From NCBI GenBank assembly GCA_036346225.1, contig JARFIW010001109.1, forward strand, positions 682,001 to 746,000: 64,000 nt of DNA, in the 5' to 3' direction. This DNA comes from Platerodrilus igneus (lineage: Eukaryota; Arthropoda; Insecta; Coleoptera; Lycidae). Of the stretch, positions 3,032 to 37,170 are shown in pieces. The notes beneath the pieces were generated by a model. It saw only the letters and a program-made list of their open reading frames with translations, did not search any database and was not told the origin of the DNA. Numbering within the stretch: position 1 is the first letter of the stretch; each line of letters starts with the position of its first letter. Made by a program: the position numbers and the translations under genes.

Positions 3032-3442
3032 CTACATTAATACTAAACCCCGTGTCATCCTCTGTGACTTCATAACTGCCTTCCATGGCACTACCCTATC
3101 CTTAATTCTTATTACCTTCCTTTCCATATCTATCAACACCCCTAACTTCATCATACAGTCAACACCTAAAATGCTCTGAAACTTCAGTCCAGGTACAATT
3201 ACAAACTCCTGTTCACAGCTAAAACCTCCTATATCTATCCTAAGCACCACAACACTATTTACTACAGCAAACTTCTTTTTATTTGGAGCTACTAAATGGC
3301 TACGTTTTATAGGCATAATTCTATCACAAACCTTATCCCTAATTTTGCTGACGAATTCCTCCGATATTAAACTCGCCTCTGCCCCTGTATCAAGTAATAC
3401 TTCTACATTATTCTCAAAAATTTCTAAATTAATAATTGGCAA
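3032..3442 (-). CDS. Retropepsin-like aspartic protease of the LTR element
   Basis: An open stretch of 136 residues contains the retropepsin active-site signature DTGAEASLI at about residues 18-26 and, about 70 residues later, the second conserved block ILGVDCMMKLG that packs under the active site in Gypsy-type proteases. In LTR elements this enzyme cuts the Gag(-Pol) polyprotein in the particle. It follows Gag and the basic region in the expected 5'-3' order on the minus strand. The stretch is probably part of a longer Gag-Pro polyprotein broken by small indels, so the ATG used here need not be a real start. There is no RT downstream. Confidence 0.85.
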   Translation of the reverse strand: MPIINLEIFENNVEVLLDTGAEASLISEEFVSKIRDKVCDRIMPIKRSHLVAPNKKKFAVVNSVVVLRIDIGGFSCEQEFVIVPGLKFQSILGVDCMMKLGVLIDMERKVIRIKDRVVPWKAVMKSQRMTRGLVLM

Positions 3443-3674
3443 ACATAATTTTTCCTCAGTTTCTGGCTCTACTTCCTCCTCAATTTTGAAAAATTCACGT
3501 GGATGTTCGTATACATTTACACAGAAATCTAGTGGTCTGTCACGTTCTAAAAATCCTGTCTCATCCTGTTTTCCGTGCTTGGTCCTGGTTGTCCTTCTAC
3601 AACCTGTGCGTACGTCCTCCTCGTGTTAATATCCGTGTCCCTGTCTCTATTCGGCGTGCTGGTCACAGTCCTGT

Positions 3675-3905
3675 TTACTCCGGTAAACTGTTCTGTCGCG
3701 TGTAACTAGGTCTTGGCGTCGGTCCCCTAGTCGCACTATTGCTTCTGTATTCCTGTCCTCGTCGTTCCCAATTCGGTCGAAAATTTCTGTTGTAGTCAGG
3801 CCGTCTCGGATAATTCGGTGTCCTGTTGTCAAACCTAACTGTGTTAACGTTTCGTTCTCGTATCTCTCTTGTCCGTCCTACACATACATCGTCATATCTC
3901 TGCAA
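3675..3905 (-). CDS. Basic C-terminal (nucleocapsid-like) Gag region
   Basis: Arginine/asparagine/tyrosine-rich 76-residue stretch following the Gag core in another frame. The shift falls at a run of five T/A (about 3913-3917); one base there would join the frames. No CCHC zinc knuckle is visible, unlike most Gypsy nucleocapsids, so RNA binding would have to rely on basic residues (inference). Confidence 0.55.
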   Translation of the reverse strand: MQRYDDVCVGRTREIRERNVNTVRFDNRTPNYPRRPDYNRNFRPNWERRGQEYRSNSATRGPTPRPSYTRQNSLPE

Positions 3906-3910
3906 ATACT

Positions 3911-4357
3911 CTAAAAATGTCTCCGTTCTGTGATGTTTTGTAAGGCCACGTGTTGTCTAATTTCCAGTTCAAAATGTCGTGATAGGTACTTGATAATCTG
4001 TCTGTCCGTCAATGGTGGATTCAGTTGTTTGGCCACACTGTACTTGCGGATGGCATATTGCTCCCTAGAACCTGCAAACTCTCCCTTAAATTTTCCTGTA
4101 ATCAAGTCGTCCCTAATCTGATCCTGTTTGTGATCACTCCAGTAATGTTGTAAAAATTTGTTTTCAAAGTCCTGATACGTGTCTATGTCCTGTCCTACTA
4201 AATTGTACCATGCTTCCGCGTTGTCCTTTAATAAAGCCTTTATCGTATTCAGTTTAGTCTGTTCGTCAAATAAATTTCCCACTAGATTTCTTACACTATT
4301 TATAAAAATTTGTGGATTTACCCTGTTATCGCCATAAAACTTCATGTGTTGTTCCAA
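3911..4357 (-). CDS. Gag core (capsid-like) domain
   Basis: 148-residue open stretch with the hallmarks of the retrotransposon Gag core: a KALLKDNAEAWY block, an aromatic/acidic segment DFENKFLQHYW, then an arginine- and tyrosine-rich helix ending in a KYLSRHFE-type segment. Gag forms the cytoplasmic particle that packages element RNA. The N-terminal part of the protein lies at 4357-4957 in other frames, separated by apparent one-base indels. Because both LTRs are young, these indels may be assembly errors rather than decay. Confidence 0.75.
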   Translation of the reverse strand: MEQHMKFYGDNRVNPQIFINSVRNLVGNLFDEQTKLNTIKALLKDNAEAWYNLVGQDIDTYQDFENKFLQHYWSDHKQDQIRDDLITGKFKGEFAGSREQYAIRKYSVAKQLNPPLTDRQIIKYLSRHFELEIRQHVALQNITERRHF

Positions 4358-4810
4358 TGATACACCACCTGTATAAAATCTGGGACCATCCCCCCGTTAA
4401 ATTTGACATGTTGTATTTGATACCACTAACTTCGCGTTCTACCCTGCCTAACTGATCCCTACATGAGTCCGTTACTTCAGTCATTTTTACGTTTATTTCT
4501 TCTTCACAGAAAATGCGTACTTCGGACCTTAAATGTCCCATTTCCTGTCGAAGACCTGTAATATCACGCTCATTTTTATCAACCCTATTTTCAACTTCCC
4601 CCCATTTTTACGGTAAGACTGTTTTTAAATTCTGTAAATTCTCTCGTCGATTTTTCTATTTTATTCCCTAATTCCTGATTTAATTGGTCAAATTTCCGAT
4701 TTGAGTCCTCTCTCGCTCTATTCGATTCATCGCTTAGCTGTTCTAATTTTCTGTTAGACTCCTCCTCGCTCTATTCGATTCTTCGTTCATCCTCTCTAGC
4801 ATTCTCATTA

Positions 4811-21265: not shown

Positions 21266-21380
21266 AAACTTATTCACTTAAAGTGCCAATTATCGGGTAT
21301 GCCTTGACAAACAAAATGTTTGTAGTGTCCAATAAGTTTAGTGAAAGTACTTTAGTTAAGTGCGTGTTGCTTGTTTAATA

Positions 21381-22463
21381 ATGTCAGCAAAAATGAGACT
21401 TAACGAAGCCGAAAGGATTGAAATTTTAATGATGATTGGCGTTGGAGATAGAATTCGAACGCACAAAGAAGTTCGAATTTTATTCAATGAAATTCATCCC
21501 GACCTCCCTCCTATCTCGCAATCAACCATAAGCCGAATTGAAAATGAATTTCGGAATATTGGACACGTACGAGATAAATCTAAAGATGTACGTCCATCAG
21601 CTTTAGGTGAAGATTCAGAATTGGATGTCTTGCTATTTGTGCAGGAAAATCCACATTCAAGCGTTGCGGGAGTCGCTTCACAGTTAAATGCACCAAAGAG
21701 TGCAGTTCATAGATTTCTCCGTAAGCAAAACTTTCACCCTTACAAAGTGCAATTAGTGCAAGAGTTATCAGATGATGATTTTGATAGGCGAGCGCAATTT
21801 TGTGAGACAATGATGGAACTTTGCAATGAAAATATTGGATTGGAAGGAAATATTACGTTTTCTGATGAGGCAACATTTTCTTTAAATGGTACCGTTAATA
21901 AGCAGAATTGCCGTTATAGGGCTGATGAAAATTCGCATTGGATGATGGAAGCAAATACACAATTTCCACAAAAGGTTAATGTTTGGGCGGGGATAGTGAG
22001 TATTAAAGTTATTGGACCATACTTTTTTGAGAGAACACTCAATGGAGAACAATATCTAAATTTTCTCCAATTTGAATTAATTCCGGCTTTAGCGGTACTA
22101 CATTCGAATGCAGAAGATCCTGATTCACCTCATCCCAGTATTTGGCTACATCAAGATGGTGCGCCTCTCCGCTATGCACGTCCAGTACGGGAATATCTTG
22201 ACCAAGTATTTCCTATGAGGTGGATTGGTAGGCGAGGACAAATTGAATGGCCCGCAAGGTCTCCCGACTTAACCCCTTTGGATTATTTAAAATCTAAAGT
22301 GTATCTGAATAGGTCTCAAAACGTAAACGAGTTAAAGCAGAGAATTTGGAATGAAATTCGCTTAATTTCCCCTCAGATAGTAAACAAAGTTCAACAAGAG
22401 TTTGTCTCTAGATTAGGACACTGCCTAGCCGCTAACGGAGAGCAGTTTGAACATTTAATTTAA
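21381..22463 (+). CDS. DD41D (rosa-like) Tc1/mariner-superfamily transposase, 360 aa
   Basis: The ATG at 21381 is the first in frame; ATG at 21393 is an alternative start. Residues ~1-70 form a helix-turn-helix region with SQSTISRIENEF; ~80-125 a second DNA-binding region (SAVHRFLRKQNFHPYK). Catalytic aspartates are D162 (TFSDEATF), D259 (HQDGAP) and D301 (SPDLTPLDY); 41 residues separate the second and third, hence DD41D, the spacing described for rosa-like elements. NVWAGI at ~200 is the usual strand before the second Asp. Directly after D301 the sequence runs YLKSKVY, whereas related insect transposases (including the decayed copy at 23.5 kb) have an extra FVWGW-type segment, so about five residues seem to be missing beside the active site. 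The frame is open but activity is uncertain. Confidence 0.92.
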   Translation: MSAKMRLNEAERIEILMMIGVGDRIRTHKEVRILFNEIHPDLPPISQSTISRIENEFRNIGHVRDKSKDVRPSALGEDSELDVLLFVQENPHSSVAGVASQLNAPKSAVHRFLRKQNFHPYKVQLVQELSDDDFDRRAQFCETMMELCNENIGLEGNITFSDEATFSLNGTVNKQNCRYRADENSHWMMEANTQFPQKVNVWAGIVSIKVIGPYFFERTLNGEQYLNFLQFELIPALAVLHSNAEDPDSPHPSIWLHQDGAPLRYARPVREYLDQVFPMRWIGRRGQIEWPARSPDLTPLDYLKSKVYLNRSQNVNELKQRIWNEIRLISPQIVNKVQQEFVSRLGHCLAANGEQFEHLI

Positions 22464-27023: not shown

Positions 27024-27282
27024 TAGTGAATAAGATGAAATAATAACTTAGACTTTTATGCAAAGCCCAAATGATCATTTCAAATCGAGCTAGTAATTGA
27101 AAGATGGAAAATATAAGGTCTTGGACAGACCTTGAACCTGTATCCTGGTTTTGCCGGAACCATGTGTTTACTAGCTCGATTTTAAATTATCATTTGGGCT
27201 TTGCATAAAAGTCTAAGTTATTATTTCATCTTATTCACTGTAATACTGTAGTATTTATCAACTTACCTTGTGTAATTAACTA

Positions 27283-27286: not shown

Positions 27287-27357
<71 letters not shown>
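27287..27357. repeat. (TA)n microsatellite, longest in the window
   Basis: About 35 TA units. Confidence 0.95.
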
Positions 27358-27360
<3 letters not shown>

Positions 27361-27734
27361 ACAAGTTATTTGCAGTCCATAATAAGAAAATAGTATATAA
27401 AGTAATTAATGAATTAATAAAGCTAATGTTTTGTTAAAGGCTATATAACTACCAGCCCGATTTGTGGCGGTTTTATTTACTTTTGCCATAGTACAGTGAT
27501 TGTTTCGAAATTATATCATTATAATAGCTTCGATTACTTCATAGGGTTCTTGGGAACAGTCCACTCTGATGAGGCTAACAAGCCGAAACCATTGGTCAGT
27601 GGATGTTTCCTCCCCTATGAATTAATAAAGCTAATGTTTTGTTAATGGCTATATAACTACCAGCCCGATTTGTATTTGTCAATGGCTCTTATTATTTTCA
27701 TAAGAGTTTGTATACAGATACATCTTACTTTATA

Positions 27735-27737
<3 letters not shown>
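27358..27737 (+). mobile_element. Hammerhead-ribozyme repeat, locus 1 (retrozyme- or Penelope-LTR-like)
   Basis: A ~60-bp block GAATTAATAAAGCTAATG ... CAGCCCGATTTGT occurs at 27412-27466 and again at 27619-27673, giving a unit of 207 bp; the ribozyme (27538-27621) lies in the first unit. The beginning (27358-27402, ACAAGTTATTTGCAGTCC ...) is an inverted copy of the element's 3' tail as seen at locus 2 (36617-36665). The 3' tail holds a CTCTTAT/ATAAGAG hairpin. No coding capacity. Small, non-coding, tandem, with a type I hammerhead and beside a Penelope-like element: features expected of metazoan retrozymes or Penelope pseudo-LTRs (inference). Confidence 0.75.
27538..27621 (+). ncRNA. Hammerhead ribozyme, type I, all core bases present
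   Basis: Core read directly: CTGATGA (27566-27572), stem II GGCT-AACA-AGCC (27573-27584), GAAA (27585-27588), stem III CC-ATT-GG (27589-27595), TC with predicted cleavage after C27597. Stem I: TCCACT (27560-27565) pairs with AGTGGA (27598-27603); past one bulged G (27559), GGGAACA (27552-27558) pairs with TGTTTCC (27604-27610, one G-U); past a small internal loop, TTCATAGGG (27538-27546) pairs with CCCTATGAA (27613-27621). That is about 22 bp of stem I. The very short stem III is typical of the type I hammerheads reported in Penelope-like elements and metazoan retrozymes, which may cleave best as dimers. Confidence 0.9.

Positions 27738-27777
<40 letters not shown>
27738..27777. repeat. (TA)n microsatellite
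   Basis: About 19 TA units separating the ribozyme repeat from the Penelope-like element. Confidence 0.95.
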
Positions 27778-27779
<2 letters not shown>

Positions 27780-27975
27780 AGATATCTCAACTGGTTAAAT
27801 AATTATTTAATTAATTTTATTATTGGGGAAAGCAGTCAAATTTGATGGATTAATAAAATACTCTTTCAATCATTCAAGCTTTCGATAAATTTATTATCTT
27901 CGTCAGGAATCTAATACATATAAAGTTAATTGTTGAAATAGTAGTTTAACATTACTTACGGTTATGAGTTTTATA

Positions 27976-28512
27976 TATACATATAACTAAGGATATCGAA
28001 AAATTTTAAATGTAAAAAGTATGAAAATTTGAAAGACATTGACATGCATTAACAGTTACTGACTGTGTAAAAATAATTAGTCTGTGCAGGAAAATTTACA
28101 TATCTCAATGCGTTTATAAATATGTATCAAATTGAAATTATAAATAAATTTAAACTAATTTTTGAAAAATTAAAGTGAATGATTATTACTTTTAATAAGG
28201 GATATTAGATAAGAATAAATATTGGCATTTATTGATATTGCAATCATTTCTAAAAATAAACATTTGTGATAATTTGGTTCTCTGAAAATAATTTTAGTGT
28301 CTATAGTTCATGGAATGTCCCGTTTCAATTACATGAGTGGTAAGAGCACAAGAGTTAACTTTCCTCTTACAATCACTTTTGTGTGAAATTATTCTGGCTG
28401 AAAGCCATCTTGCTGTTTGTCCAACATAACAGGTTTGACAATTTTGACAAGGTATTTCATAAACTAAACCAGACTCCTGTAGTTTTTGAGTGTTATCTTT
28501 TACTTTAGAAAA
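27976..28512 (-). repeat. Inverted 5' copy of the Penelope 3' half (endonuclease fragment)
   Basis: Minus-strand reading gives the GIY-YIG core (GLVYEIPCQNCQTCYVGQTA) and the same 3' tail as the right arm. It diverges slightly (for example ALTTH for DLTTH) and goes through the TTAA-containing site uninterrupted, serving as an empty-site control for the piggyBac insertion. Confidence 0.85.
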
Positions 28513-28639
28513 TATTATTACTAACAAAAAATATTACACTCCCTTAGACAAAGACCCCACAAGTACCATTCAACAAAAATCCAACAAAATAATATCAGAT
28601 TTAAAAAAATCGAATAATATAACCCCCGAAGAAGCAAAA

Positions 28640-29500
28640 AATTAACAATTTAGAATGCTACTGCTCCCAAATTTTACGGACTTCCTAAAATACACAAACC
28701 ACACTCACACTTAGACCAATAATTTCATCAACTTAAGCTCCCAATTCCAAAATTGCAGAAATGATTACAAACATACTTACTAATGCATATAACACAGACA
28801 ACATTTATTATGTCAGAGATTCTTTTCAGTTTGCGACTTTTATAAACGAATACCAACTTCCAACAGGTTATGTGTTGATTAGTTTAGATGCTATTTCTCT
28901 CTTCAATAACATTCCTTTTACACTTGTAAAAGATAGTATAGAAAACCATTGGGAAACAATTAAATCTCACTGCAAACTAAGTTATAACAAATTTATTAAT
29001 CTAGTAGAATTTATCTTTAACACAACATACTTTACTTAATAACAATACCTTCTACAAACAAACAATAGGCAGTCCCATGGGATCTACGATATCTCCTGTA
29101 ATTGCACAATACGTTATGGATGACCTATTCAATACATGTATTCCTAAACTAAATTTTCAATTTCCATTTTTCAAGAAATATGTTGATGACTTAATTTGCA
29201 GTATTCCTGAAGGAAGAAGTGACGAAGTACTTCAACTATTCAATGCATACAACACAGGTATACAATTTACTATAGAAACAGAAACCAACAAAAGTATTCC
29301 TTTTTTAGATATGCTAATTACTAGAACAGAAAACAACATCCTTATTACTAGTTGGTATCGAAAACCAATGTCTTCTGGAAGATTTTTAAATTTTCATTCC
29401 TCTCATCCACTGAAAACCAAAATTAACCTTAGTACTAGGAATGAAAAATAGAATTGAACTAATATCACATTCTACACCAAAAAAAACTATAACTTAAACA
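28640..29500 (+). pseudogene. Penelope-type reverse transcriptase, 5'-truncated
   Basis: Frames in order contain KFYGLPKIHK (hallmark motif of Penelope RT), LRPIISS, YVLISLDAISLFNNIP (first catalytic Asp block), GSPMGSTISPVIAQYVMDDL, and the catalytic box FFKKYVDDLICSIPEG (YVDD), then IPFLDMLI and TSWYRKP. Shifts occur near 28650, 29038 and 29445; otherwise codons are well preserved. Copies element RNA into DNA primed at a nick; Penelope RTs are related to telomerase. The N-terminal part of the ORF is missing, so the copy cannot be autonomous. Confidence 0.85.
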
Positions 29501-29756
29501 AATTAAAAAACATACTTATACAAAATTCATACCCTCCAGGATTAATAAATAAATTATTATTCAATAATTCTTCGAAATCAGAATATACAACAAACAATAC
29601 AACAATAAAAAACAACAATAGTAATAACAATTCCATAACACAACCTTTATTTTACACACTTCCATACATACAAAACGTCACAAACAAAATATCTCACATA
29701 TTTAAAGAATTTAAAGATTTAAAAATTTCCAATAAAACTATACTCACTATAAATAA

Positions 29757-30087
29757 GATATTTTCTAAAGTAAAAGATAACACTCAAAAACTACAGGAGT
29801 CTGGTTTAGTTTATGAAATACCTTGTCAGAATTGTCAAACCTGTTATGTTGGACAAACAGCAAGATGGCTTTCAGCCAGAATAATTTTACACAAAAGTGA
29901 TTGTAAGAGGAAAGTTAACTCTTGTGATCTTACCACTCATGTAATTGAAATGGGACATTCCATGAACTATACAGACACTAAAATTATTTTCAGAGGACCA
30001 AATTATCACAAACGTTTATTTTTAGAAATGATTGCAATATCAATAAATGCCAACACACTAAACAAAAAACAGATACACAAAATTTGA
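29757..30087 (+). pseudogene. Penelope GIY-YIG endonuclease domain
   Basis: An open stretch to TGA at 30085-30087 has the GIY-YIG signature as GLVYEIPC ... TCYVGQTARWLSARI with the CxxC pair typical of Penelope (PCQNCQTC), and downstream LTTHVIEMGHSMNYTDTKI and a LEMIAISINANTLNKK end. The domain nicks target DNA to start insertion. It joins the RT part through FYTLPYIQNVTNKI and EFKDLKISNKTI segments in broken frame. Confidence 0.85.
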
Positions 30088-30307
30088 ACAATATTTATTC
30101 TTATCTAATATCCCTTATTAAAAGTAATAATCAGTCACTTTAATTTTTCAAAAATTAGTTTAAATTTATTTATAATTTTAATTTGACACATATTTATAAA
30201 CACATTGAGATATGTAAATTCTCCTGCATAGACTAATTATTTTTACATAGTCAGTAACTGTTAATATATGTCAATGTCTTTCAAATTTTCATACTGTTTA
30301 CATTTAA

Positions 30308-32631
30308 CACGTTGACTGCCACGACAATTTTCAGAATTCCGGTCTAAAAAGCCAATTTCATCTAATCATTTTATATTATTAAAAACTCTAATTATATTAC
30401 ATAGTAATCATCAAAAAGCATAGAAAATGTATTTTTTTAAAAAAGGTCTTACGAATTATCTCGTAGTTGGCTTATGTAACAGAAAACTCTTCGCAGAAGC
30501 CAACTACGAGTTAATTCGTACACAGACACGTTTAGACCTGTCGCTTCGCTAAAGCTGAATCAGATATATGCATCCATATTCGTCAGTAGTATATCAGATA
30601 TTGTCAAGTGCTTCACATTTACGTCTTTCTTGAGTGTGTTGTTTTATAATTATTGTTATAATTAAATTATCAAGAAACCAATATGGATAAGAAAAGACCA
30701 CTGACTGAAAATGAACTTGAGTACTACGCTAATCGAAGTGATTCAGAATTTGACGAGATTTTCGGCGAGGATGGTAACGACAGTAGCGATTATGAACCTT
30801 CTGAGAATTCAAGTGATAGTGACGATGAAGTCGTCTCCGAACCTGAAGATGAAGTTGTTCCCGATCCCGATGATAATGATGATGACTCCCAAGCAACAAC
30901 ATCAAATACGGATGATAATTTGTGGACAGAAATTCAACAAAATCCTGAACTATTTATTTTCCAAGAAAATGTTGGTTTGAAATTGGATACGTCAAATTTT
31001 ACAGTGCAAACGCTGGTGGACTTATTTTTTTCGGAAGAGTTTCTTGCATTACTGGTCGAACAAACTAATTTATATGCTGTGCAAGAAATTGCAAAACGCA
31101 CAGCAATAAAAAAATCTAACAGGGTATCAAAGTGGACAGACGTCAGTGCTGCAGAGATGAAATTGTTTATTGCACTTTTGTTACAAATGGGGCCTTGTTC
31201 TTTCCCATCAATTTAACATTACTGGAGCACAAGCAAGCTATATAATGTAATGTTTTGGTGCTCAAATATGAGTCGAAATCGATTCCAGTTGTTACTTCGT
31301 TATTTTCATTTGGTTGATAACACAATACCATCTGCCGACAGGTTATACAAGGTGAGACCAATTCTAACTCATTTCAACAATATTATGCATGAAAACTATG
31401 TACCAGATAAAAATATTTGTATTGACGAATCCATGATGCTGTGGCGTGGAAGATTGCATTGCCGCCAGTACATAAAAAATAAAAAACACAAATACGGTGT
31501 CAAACTGTACGAACTATGTGAGTCCGACGGTCTTGTAATGAAAATCAAAATTTACAGCGGAAAATCAGAGGAAACACCATAATTTAGGTCACACTACTGG
31601 TGTTGTGTTACATTTACTCGAGGACTATCTCGATAAGGGATACACGCTTTATATGGACAATTTTTATAATTCTGTTACTCTTAACTAAATTACTAAATAC
31701 AAGAAAAACTTACGTGTGTGGAACTCTACGAAATAACAGAAAGGGAAACCCCAGAGATGTGGTAGATCGTAAACTCAAAAAAGGAGAGTGTATTTGGCAG
31801 CAAAATGGACTTGTTACTGTGTGCAAATGGAAGGACAAACGAGATGTCCTTGCCATTTCAAACATGCTTGTTGTTGAAATGGTAGAGGTGTCCAATCGCA
31901 ATGGAAAACATTCTATGAAACCGAATATAATTCGAGATTACAATAAAAGAATGTCTGGAATTGACCGATCAGATCAAATGCTGTCGTACTACACATCTCT
32001 AAGAATGACATTAGATGGCCTAAAAAGGTTTCACTACATATTATAGAGATACACAATATACACAATGCGCACAAAATTTTTCAAAAAGTAACTTCTTCTA
32101 AAATAAAACTGATAAAGTTTAGAGAAGAATTCGTCGTCGCGTTGATTGGAGAAGAGATTCAACCAGTTTTGAAAAAGATGAGATTGCAAGAGCTTCATTA
32201 TTTAGAGAGTCTGCCACCTACCGAAAAAAAACAACGTCCGACAAAGCCATGTCGTATATGTACCCAAGCAAAAAAACGCCGAGAAACGCGTTGTTTTTGT
32301 CCGGCATGTGAAGAGAAGCCAGCCCTTTGTGTGGAAGATTGTTTTAAAAAGTTTCACAAACAATAAAAATATTCTTTTACTTCTTGATTTTGAATAAATT
32401 TTTTATAATTATATTTTCCGTTTATTTATTAATAAAATTTCAGTTCATGTAGCCAGCATTGATTTTTTGTTCTCTTCCCAGAAGCGATCTATCCATATTA
32501 GCACTGATATGCTACGAGTTTAATCGTAACTGCGCGATAATGGCAAGTAAACACAGTACGAGATAACTCGTAGTCGGCGTCCTAGCAAAGAACGCAATCT
32601 ACGAGTTATCTCGTAGTTGGCAGTCAACGTG
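30308..32631 (+). mobile_element. piggyBac element with perfect TTAA duplication
   Basis: Perfect 14-bp terminal inverted repeats CACGTTGACTGCCA/TGGCAGTCAACGTG, flanked on both sides by TTAA (30304-30307 and 32632-32635). Subterminal palindromic motifs CTACGAG...CTCGTAG occur twice at each end (about 30461-30515 and 32548-32616). Length 2,324 bp. Removing it with one TTAA restores the Penelope tail exactly as in the uninterrupted inverted arm at about 28000. Confidence 0.95.
30683..32366 (+). pseudogene. piggyBac transposase, one stop and about three frameshifts
   Basis: Starts at an ATG with an acidic Asp/Ser-rich N-terminus (residues ~15-85), then the DDE_Tnp_1_7 region. Catalytic Asp candidates: D in NICIDESMM (31417-31437), D in LYMDNFYNS (about 31650), D in MSGIDRSDQM (about 31960). 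The C-terminus is a cysteine-rich zinc domain, CRICTQAKKRRETRCFCPAC ... FKKFHKQ (32250-32366). An in-frame TAA at 31214-31216 and shifts near 31580, 31685 and 32040 break the frame; the residues on each side still align to one protein, so the damage is recent or partly due to sequencing error. A functional enzyme would excise precisely at TTAA. Confidence 0.9.

Positions 32632-36590: not shown

Positions 36591-36616
<26 letters not shown>
36591..36616. repeat. (TA)n microsatellite
   Basis: About 12 TA units. Confidence 0.9.
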
Positions 36617-36621
<5 letters not shown>

Positions 36622-37170
36622 CAAGTTATTTGCAGTCCGCAATAAGAAAATTGTATATAAAGTAAGATGTATCTGTAAACAAACTCTTATGAAAATAATA
36701 AGAGCCATTGACAAATACAAATCGGGCTGGTAGTTATATAGCCATTAACAAAACATTAGCTTTATTACTTCACAGGGGAGGAAACATCCACTGACCAATG
36801 GTTTTGGCTTGTTAGCCTCATTAGAGTGGAATAGTTCCCAAGAACCCTATGAAGTAATCGAAGGTATTATAATGATATAATTTCGAAACAATTACTGTTC
36901 TATGGCAAAAGTAAATAAAACCGCCGTCAGGTGATAAAACACCAACACTACTAAAGTGTGGAAGTACAGAATTGAACCGAACCGAAACTACATAATAAAT
37001 TTTATAAATGACTGTAAAAGTATGTCTGGCCTTTGAGATTTGCGGAATGTTACAGCAAAATTTATTTGCAAACGTAACAAACCTTCTTCGGTTCAATTCT
37101 GTACTTCCACACTTTAGTAGTGTTGGTGTTTTATCACCTGATGGCGGTTTTATTTACTTTTGCTTTAGTG
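36617..37170 (-). mobile_element. Hammerhead-ribozyme repeat, locus 2
   Basis: Minus strand carries the same repeat as locus 1, from the GGCGGTTTTATTTACTTTTGC block (36891-36911) through the ribozyme (36768-36854) to the 3' tail ending at the TA repeat (36617). On the far side, 36891-36985 and 37085-37165 form an inverted pair of ~80 bp (GGTTCAATTCTGTACTTCCA ... CACCTGATGGCGG), so this copy extends into a hairpin absent from locus 1. Confidence 0.8.
36768..36854 (-). ncRNA. Hammerhead ribozyme copy with dead core
   Basis: Stem I (CTTCATAGGG with CCCTGTGAAG, and TCCACT with AGTGGA), stem II GGCT-AACA-AGCC and stem III are kept. The core reads CTAATGA instead of CTGATGA (G5 to A; plus position 36822) and AAAA instead of GAAA (G12 to A; plus position 36805). 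Both guanines are required for hammerhead catalysis, so self-cleavage is not expected. Confidence 0.85.

What the first reader, a model, noticed from the sequence alone, without database searches (positions are those of the whole stretch)
27538..27621. Complete type I hammerhead ribozyme in a small repeat
All invariant core bases are present (CTGATGA, GAAA, UC before the cleavage site), stem II and a minimal stem III form, and stem I extends to about 22 bp with one bulge and one internal loop. Such complete complementarity around an intact core is very unlikely by chance. Type I hammerheads with tiny stem III are known from Penelope-like elements and metazoan retrozymes; a specific insect family like this one may be undescribed.
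Basis: partly seen in the sequence, partly recalled or inferred. Interest (0 to 1): 0.92.

Follow-up and report, generated by a model that had tools for sequence, protein, structure and literature searches.

The report
Beetle ribozyme retroelement with Penelope-like ends
A self-cutting RNA motif in this beetle genome sits in a small mobile element with no protein genes of its own, and the way its copies are inserted matches neighbouring jumping genes (Penelope-like elements), which suggests what machinery moves such ribozyme elements in animals.

Summary
The hammerhead is real. Core and all 28 drawn pairs are intact; a strict finder hits the window once and 0 of 400 simulated windows; across two families about 62% identical, 9 of 18 pairs change on both sides. 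Rfam models stay below threshold. The host is a beetle nearest Platerodrilus by COX1 (89%).

The 84 nt lie in a 509-511 bp tandem unit: a metazoan-type non-LTR retrozyme, longer than published ones. The window copy is internally deleted.

The unexpected part is the insertion anatomy. Most copies read are head-to-head two-armed insertions in (TA)n, with outer ends at two fixed internal sites, A and B, about 38-44 nt apart. Fixed patterns pair A with B in 21 of 21 cases (one doubtful; by eye one B|B exception). Arms cross the cleavage site and can hold several units, as circular or multimeric templates would give. Penelope-like elements of the same genome, one beside the window copy, show the same anatomy. 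This matches the two-site initiation and 'tail' shown in vitro for a PLE (PMC11167929). I infer PLE mobilisation. Cleavage, circles and mobilisation are untested.

The parts
27538..27621 (+). Type I hammerhead ribozyme; predicted cleavage between 27597 and 27598
27287..27357 (.). (TA)n tract at the left (B) end of the insertion
27351..27405 (-). Short inverted arm ('tail'), unit about 188-243, outer end at site B; match limits overlap the (TA)n
27409..27465 (+). Direct piece, unit 80-136; repeated at 27617-27673 (98%)
27465..27740 (+). Direct arm, unit 439 through the ribozyme to about 203, outer end at site A; unit 137-438 is missing from this copy
27731..27776 (.). (TA)n tract at the right (A) end, shared with the outer end of the neighbouring Penelope-like element
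36610..37087 (-). Second copy of the same element, outer end B in (TA)n; its hammerhead at 36769-36853 has core changes (CTAATGA, CCAAAA)
37087..37169 (+). Truncated second arm of that copy, unit 384-466
27774..28515 (-). Inverted arm of a degenerate Penelope-like element; outer end B' in the (TA)n; minimal hammerhead-like motif at 27859-27906
28516..30307 (+). Direct arm of the same element: broken reverse-transcriptase frame, then ORF 29458-30087 (C-terminal, GIY-YIG-like by comparison with relatives)
   Evidence: the window ORF itself had 0 Pfam hits

Best explanation
The hammerhead belongs to a non-autonomous ribozyme retroelement (a metazoan-type retrozyme) of a net-winged-beetle-like insect. 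Proposed cycle: tandem genomic units are transcribed; the hammerhead cuts the transcript at the position of 27597/27598; monomers are circularised; the reverse transcriptase/endonuclease of resident Penelope-like elements uses this RNA in trans. It opens both strands of a (TA)n tract; one 3' end primes at site A (about unit 199) and the other at site B (about unit 237-243). The two cDNAs run round the circle or along a multimer and are joined head to head, leaving A at one end, B at the other and a variable inner junction. If the B-primed cDNA stops where the A-primed one began, only the short inverted tail remains, as in the window copy. Shown by sequence: conserved ribozyme, tandem units, fixed A and B ends, (TA)n targets, same anatomy in local PLEs. 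Inferred: cleavage, circles, PLE acting in trans, order of steps.
For: Ribozyme. Tandem 509-511 bp units. Ends: 21 of 21 pattern-defined pairs are A with B (L030 doubtful); family 2, 5 of 6 with both ends seen. Targets: 36 of 38 outer ends of 19 two-armed copies lie within 40 nt of (TA)7+, against 199 of 20000 random window positions. Arms cross the cleavage site and may hold several units; inner ends are not enriched at the cleavage site, 2 of 58. PLEs of the same genome: outward ends at two sites about 30-34 nt apart in (TA)n, 4 of 5 PLE1 copies with both ends legible are A'|B'. 5 of 20 PLE 3' ends fetched face a retrozyme end across one (TA)n. A purified PLE protein cuts both strands of AT-rich DNA and starts at two adjacent internal RNA sites, the RNA between them being the genomic 'tail' of 30-40 bp (PMC11167929, parts 1-3 of 4 read).
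Against: No RNA, cleavage, circle or new insertion was tested. Exceptions exist: one B|B (L027), one A|A in family 2 (C848, perhaps two insertions), one B'|B' PLE (L042), and about nine single-armed, truncated or odd family 1 copies. Retrozyme and PLE share little sequence: the best stretch at the ends is reached by 14 of 500 shuffles, the other three comparisons by 140-319 of 500. Among 31 retrozyme sources only the window faces a PLE end directly. The two arms of a copy are not clearly from one RNA (409 of 2000 permutations; mean 0, median 1000 of 5000). In PMC11167929 ribozyme mutations did not affect insertion in vitro and unprocessed RNA was the main substrate, so circles are not required. 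(TA)n flanks hide target duplications. The 8 PLE loci were picked because their hits lay head to head.
Confidence: 0.7

Rival explanations
1. The element is mobilised by a LINE, with ordinary twin priming at (TA)n: the second target strand primes inside the same RNA and gives inverted arms.
For: Twin priming gives inverted arms (recalled from LINE-1 work); LINEs are named as candidates beside PLEs in PMC7229834 (section 17). No LINE ends were examined here.
Against: Both outer ends are internal and fixed; arms overlap in unit coordinates and run more than one turn; PLEs of this genome show the same paired ends and targets.
Confidence: 0.12
2. Ordinary satellite DNA spread by DNA-level amplification, with the ribozyme as a passenger.
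For: Arrays of up to about a dozen units (L009 with L031); a similar unit size in the cave-cricket pDo500 satellite (name and abstract, PMC2837043).
Against: Copies on many contigs are dispersed insertions with two recurrent ends in (TA)n and different inner junctions; ribozyme pairs covary between families.
Confidence: 0.05
3. A DNA transposon or MITE that targets TA microsatellites; the inverted arms are its terminal inverted repeats.
For: Inverted arms and TA targets; a Mutator-like family targeting TA microsatellites is in print (PMC4486113, search listing only).
Against: The two ends differ (A and B), inner junctions vary from copy to copy (58 arms listed), and arms carry varying numbers of tandem units.
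Confidence: 0.03
4. The unit is a separated, diverged pLTR of a Penelope-like element rather than an independent retrozyme.
For: Same kind of ends and targets; both carry hammerheads.
Against: No clear alignment between the unit's 3' part and PLE1/PLE2 3' ends apart from about 21 nt; the local PLEs carry a different, minimal motif; the tripled unit has no stop-free stretch over 101 aa.
Confidence: 0.08

Closest known systems
Metazoan non-LTR retrozymes (Cervera and de la Pena 2020, PMC7229834; sections 13, 14 and 17 read, plus term searches)
   Same: Type I hammerhead in tandem repeats of low GC without long ORF; many copies; stable predicted circle; PLEs in the same genome.
   Different: Unit 509-518 bp against about 170-400 nt (or 150-450 bp repeats) reported; head-to-head arms with two fixed ends and a tail are not mentioned in the parts I read ('inverted' and 'tail' 0 hits in its main text).
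Penelope-like elements, as Poseidon of Anolis (PMC11167929, parts 1-3 of 4 read)
   Same: AT-rich targets, both strands used, two adjacent internal start sites, tail between them, hammerhead upstream of the sites.
   Different: PLEs encode RT and endonuclease; the unit has no such ORF. The hammerhead here is complete, with long stem I and a looped stem III, not the minimal PLE form.
pDo500 hammerhead satellite of Dolichopoda cave crickets (PMC2837043, abstract and outline seen)
   Same: Insect repeat of about 500 bp by name, with a hammerhead under selection and compensatory changes.
   Different: Described there as satellite DNA; sequences were not compared here, and its insertion anatomy was not examined.

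Membership tests
Type I hammerhead ribozyme | Invariant core, three helices, stem I open-ended | tested here: met
   covariation
Type I hammerhead ribozyme | Match to a curated Rfam model at its threshold | tested here: not met
   0 hits at gathering; RF00008 22 of 48.5 bits
Type I hammerhead ribozyme | Self-cleavage | not testable with these tools
   needs a transcript in Mg2+
Metazoan non-LTR retrozyme | Type I hammerhead in each tandem unit | tested here: met
   L009: 9 full-length and 2 partial matches in register; units 509-511 bp
Metazoan non-LTR retrozyme | Unit of about 170-400 nt (150-450 bp repeats) | tested here: not met
   509-511 bp and 518 bp; I take size as descriptive, not defining
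Metazoan non-LTR retrozyme | GC under 50%, no coding capacity | tested here: met
   GC 0.352; longest stop-free stretch of the tripled unit 101 aa
Metazoan non-LTR retrozyme | No LTR, primer binding site or polypurine tract | not tested
   not searched for
Metazoan non-LTR retrozyme | Expressed as linear and circular RNA | not testable with these tools
   no RNA data; predicted circle -146.4 against -102.3 kcal/mol for 20 shuffles
Penelope-like element | ORF with RT and GIY-YIG endonuclease | tested here: not met
   no long ORF in the unit: it is not a PLE
Penelope-like element | Two adjacent start sites and a 30-40 bp tail | tested here: met
   A and B about 38-44 nt apart; shortest inverted arms 42-43 nt by match limits in L028 and L003
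Penelope-like element | AT-rich targets | tested here: met
   36 of 38 ends near (TA)7+
pDo500 satellite | Sequence homology with pDo500 | not tested
   no pDo500 sequence was compared

The most novel reading that the evidence does not exclude
A Penelope-like reverse transcriptase acts in trans on hammerhead-made circular RNA: each strand of a (TA)n target primes at one of two adjacent sites of the circle, both cDNAs run round it and are joined head to head. This would be a genomic trace of the enzyme and mechanism that move metazoan retrozymes, and would explain both their tandem arrays and their inverted arms.
Probability: 0.6. Interest if true: 0.85.

Novelty: new variant of a known kind. 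Interest (0 to 1): 0.7.

Why it matters
Metazoan retrozymes make abundant ribozyme circles, but what moves them is open: PMC7229834 (section 17), PMC7761336 and PMC11722881 (passages) name PLEs or LINEs only as candidates. The anatomy here gives a direct, testable mark, two fixed ends per insertion shared with resident PLEs, and natural substrates (two retrozyme families, several PLE families) for a trans-mobilisation assay. It also suggests how a circular RNA without a 3' end can be reverse-transcribed. I saw no report of this link in the listings of paper searches; these cover only the held open-access library, and I opened seven of the papers, mostly in part.

Tried and rejected
Rfam as arbiter: no threshold hit; replaced by core, simulation and covariation. 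Run-off of linear monomers, which would put arm ends at the cleavage site: not seen. Shared end sequence of retrozyme and PLE: weak, kept as suggestive. Shared hairpins around the start sites: predicted folds differ, dropped. L070/C1114 and L040/C376, retrozyme joined to PLE sequence, as template-switch products: undecided. Both arms from one RNA: first version negative (409 of 2000 permutations); with end regions masked and overlaps of at least 100 nt, mean 0 of 5000 but median 1000 of 5000, 10 of 15 ranks below 0.5. Targets of the form CACAGCAA(TA)nTTGCTGTG: pattern search did not complete. One search printed nothing (pattern too strict); one search repeated it.

Limits. Family 1 copies were taken by 84/84 identity of the ribozyme, so they lean to young copies; they were not chosen by their ends. 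Duplicate loci (L001, L002, L004, L005, L007, L008, L034, L038) were dropped before counting. The patterns demand a following TA run, so they do not test the target preference; one search does, for 19 two-armed copies that I listed by hand. Inner ends were typed and are good to a few nt. The 12 sequences of the covariation test were chosen by me from 38 distinct matches. Site distances for PLEs (about 30-34 nt) were recounted from the printed sequences; my notes say 35-37, which was too long.

Full report
Observation. At 27538-27621 the + strand carries a complete type I hammerhead: 22 bp of interrupted stem I, CTGATGA, a 4-bp stem II, GAAA, a 2-bp stem III closed by AUU, GGTC, predicted cleavage after 27597. 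A strict finder (core, stem II at least 3 bp, stem III at least 2, stem I at least 5) finds it once in the window and 0 times in 400 simulated windows, both strands. Rfam models stay below their thresholds. The minimum-energy fold contains a competing CUGAUG/CAUUGG pairing, -35.8 against -31.0 kcal/mol for the catalytic pairing, so activity is likely, not certain.

Conservation. In the window's own assembly (2.71 Gb, 1723 contigs) the first look gave 1054 candidates, of which 40 were scored; the table lists 40 places at 84 of 84 and one of 77 nt. A second family (unit 518 bp; 1422 first-look candidates, 39 scored) aligns at 61% over 570 nt. In an alignment of 12 sequences from both families and decayed copies, 18 named pairs are formed in 97.2% of cells (shuffles 86.4), 9 pairs change on both sides, and the covariation score is 0.483 against 0.265 for shuffles and 0.083-0.178 when slid. 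Two measures do not stand out: 27 of 500 shuffles reach 9 double-change pairs, and all 500 reach the number of pair types. Stem I next to the core reads TCCACT/AGTGGA in one family and TTCATC/GATGAA in the other. Family 2 has CUAG in place of a looped stem III, so it may work as a dimer; that is an inference, helped by the dimeric PLE hammerheads mentioned in PMC7761336 (passages).

Host. A COX1 gene of the assembly (L090, code 5) is 89% identical to Platerodrilus sp.; the other listed proteins reach 84% at most, and the best-listed are beetles. With 97 COX1 matches many copies must be nuclear inserts, so this places the host near Lycidae rather than naming it.

The element. Unit numbering starts at the ribozyme (511 nt, from L009). 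L009 holds 9 full-length ribozyme matches and 2 partial ones in register. The unit has GC 0.352 and no stop-free stretch over 101 aa. As a circle it folds at -146.4 kcal/mol against -102.3 (sd 6.7) for 20 shuffles. The window copy is an internally deleted insertion: inverted tail 27351-27405, direct piece 27409-27465, then 27465-27740 with the ribozyme, bounded by (TA)n. A second copy at 36610-37169 has a damaged core.

Insertion anatomy. Most copies read have two arms pointing outward, joined head to head at a variable point. One outer end lies at site A (...ATCTTACTTTATATA, unit about 199), the other at site B (...AACTTGTCTTTGT, unit about 237-243), each running into (TA)n; the sites are about 38-44 nt apart. 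With fixed patterns, 31 sources (30 loci and the window) give 21 left-right pairs, 9 A|B and 12 B|A, none A|A or B|B, and 11 single ends; p = 4.8e-7 against equal chance. One pair, in L030, probably joins two insertions. By eye, L006, L010 and L014 add three A|B with damaged ends, L027 is B|B, and about nine copies are single-armed, truncated or odd. Of 19 two-armed copies 36 of 38 outer ends lie within 40 nt of (TA)7+, against 199 of 20000 random window positions. The shortest inverted arms are about the stretch between the sites: unit 201-243 in L003 (43 nt) and L028 (42 nt) by match limits, about 16 nt in L017 by eye, 27 nt in family 2 (L073).

Templates. Arms run across the cleavage site and may hold several units, so the template was circular or multimeric. 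L028 has its tail plus 508 nt from unit 201 round to 199, one full turn. Inner ends are not enriched at the cleavage site: 2 of 58 within 5 nt, 1.25 expected; 10 of 58 fall at 110-134 (2.8 expected, a range chosen afterwards). Whether both arms of a copy come from one RNA is undecided.

Family 2. Of 12 copies examined, 6 show both ends: C919, C170, C479, C1453 and C376 are A|B (C376 has no (TA)n at B, where it joins PLE sequence), and C848 is A|A, perhaps two insertions; the other 6 have an A end and a truncated side.

Penelope-like elements. The window ORF 29458-30087 has 150 scored matches in the assembly, itself included, from 32562 first-look candidates. A relative in L039 has RVT_1 (E 2.3e-10); L041 has a GIY-YIG match below the cut-off (17.7 of 22.6 bits); database relatives include insect proteins with RVT_1, some with GIY-YIG. 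I fetched 8 loci whose hits lay head to head. In 7, inverted arms of 0.99-1.88 kb at 94.7-99.1% are found; L044 shows none in that table but has outward ends on both sides. Their ends run into (TA)n at two sites, A' and B', about 30 nt apart in PLE1 and 30-34 in PLE2 as recounted. Of PLE1 copies with both ends legible, L039, L043, L044 and L046 are A'|B' and L042 is B'|B'.

Shared targets. Of 20 further PLE 3' ends, 16 with a TA run, 5 (L053, L055, L058, L059, L060) face a retrozyme end across one (TA)n, as the window PLE does. From the retrozyme side only the window does so directly among 31 sources; L016, L026 and L032 hold a PLE end elsewhere. Both kinds also sit beside the same repeat, TACTCATATTTAGACC: L016, L021, L025, L033 (family 1), L068 (family 2, one change), L039 and L056 (PLE).

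Mechanism. Frangieh et al. 2024 (PMC11167929, parts 1-3 of 4 read) show that a purified anole PLE protein cuts both strands of AT-rich DNA and starts reverse transcription at two adjacent internal RNA sites, and that the PLE genomic tail is the RNA between them. They report that the start site is not homologous to the cut DNA; here site A happens to end in TATATA, so pairing with the target cannot be excluded. The retrozyme shows this two-site signature at sites of its own. I infer that PLE enzyme reverse-transcribes retrozyme RNA, one target strand primed at A and the other at B.

Comparison. The element fits the metazoan non-LTR retrozymes (PMC7229834) except for its longer unit, and is not a PLE, since it has no RT or endonuclease. 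That paper and PMC7761336 name PLEs as candidates because of shared hammerheads, tandem copies and co-occurrence; a 2024 review leaves LINE or PLE open (PMC11722881, passages). What I add is the two-armed, two-site insertion anatomy shared with resident PLEs.

Noticed in passing
27025-27239: Inverted repeat, 72-nt arms 97% complementary, 71 nt apart; with the sequence after it, it flanks the (TA)n target of the window copy.
   Followed up: no
flanks of e.g. L015, L022, L037, L043, L057, L086: Many (TA)n targets of retrozymes and PLEs are bordered by CACAGCAA or its reverse complement TTGCTGTG, sometimes on both sides, as if the tract lay in a small palindromic repeat.
   Followed up: partly
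30308-32046 (+): piggyBac-type transposase pieces (DDE_Tnp_1_7) beginning next to a TTAA where the PLE stops; probably an insertion into the PLE.
   Followed up: no
3032-4396 (-): Aspartyl-protease ORF of a retroelement and a neighbouring ORF without Pfam hit.
   Followed up: no
21360-22463 (+): 367-aa ORF with a Tc3-type helix-turn-helix below the Pfam cut-off: Tc1/mariner-like transposase.
   Followed up: no
assembly G000, e.g. C1554, C329, C957: 97 COX1 matches, several nearly full length and open under code 5: many recent mitochondrial inserts in the nuclear genome.
   Followed up: partly
L070 (C1114:563800-564250): Inverted retrozyme arm joined head to head to a degenerate PLE-like coding stretch; could be a mixed-template insertion or an insertion into an old PLE.
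   Followed up: partly
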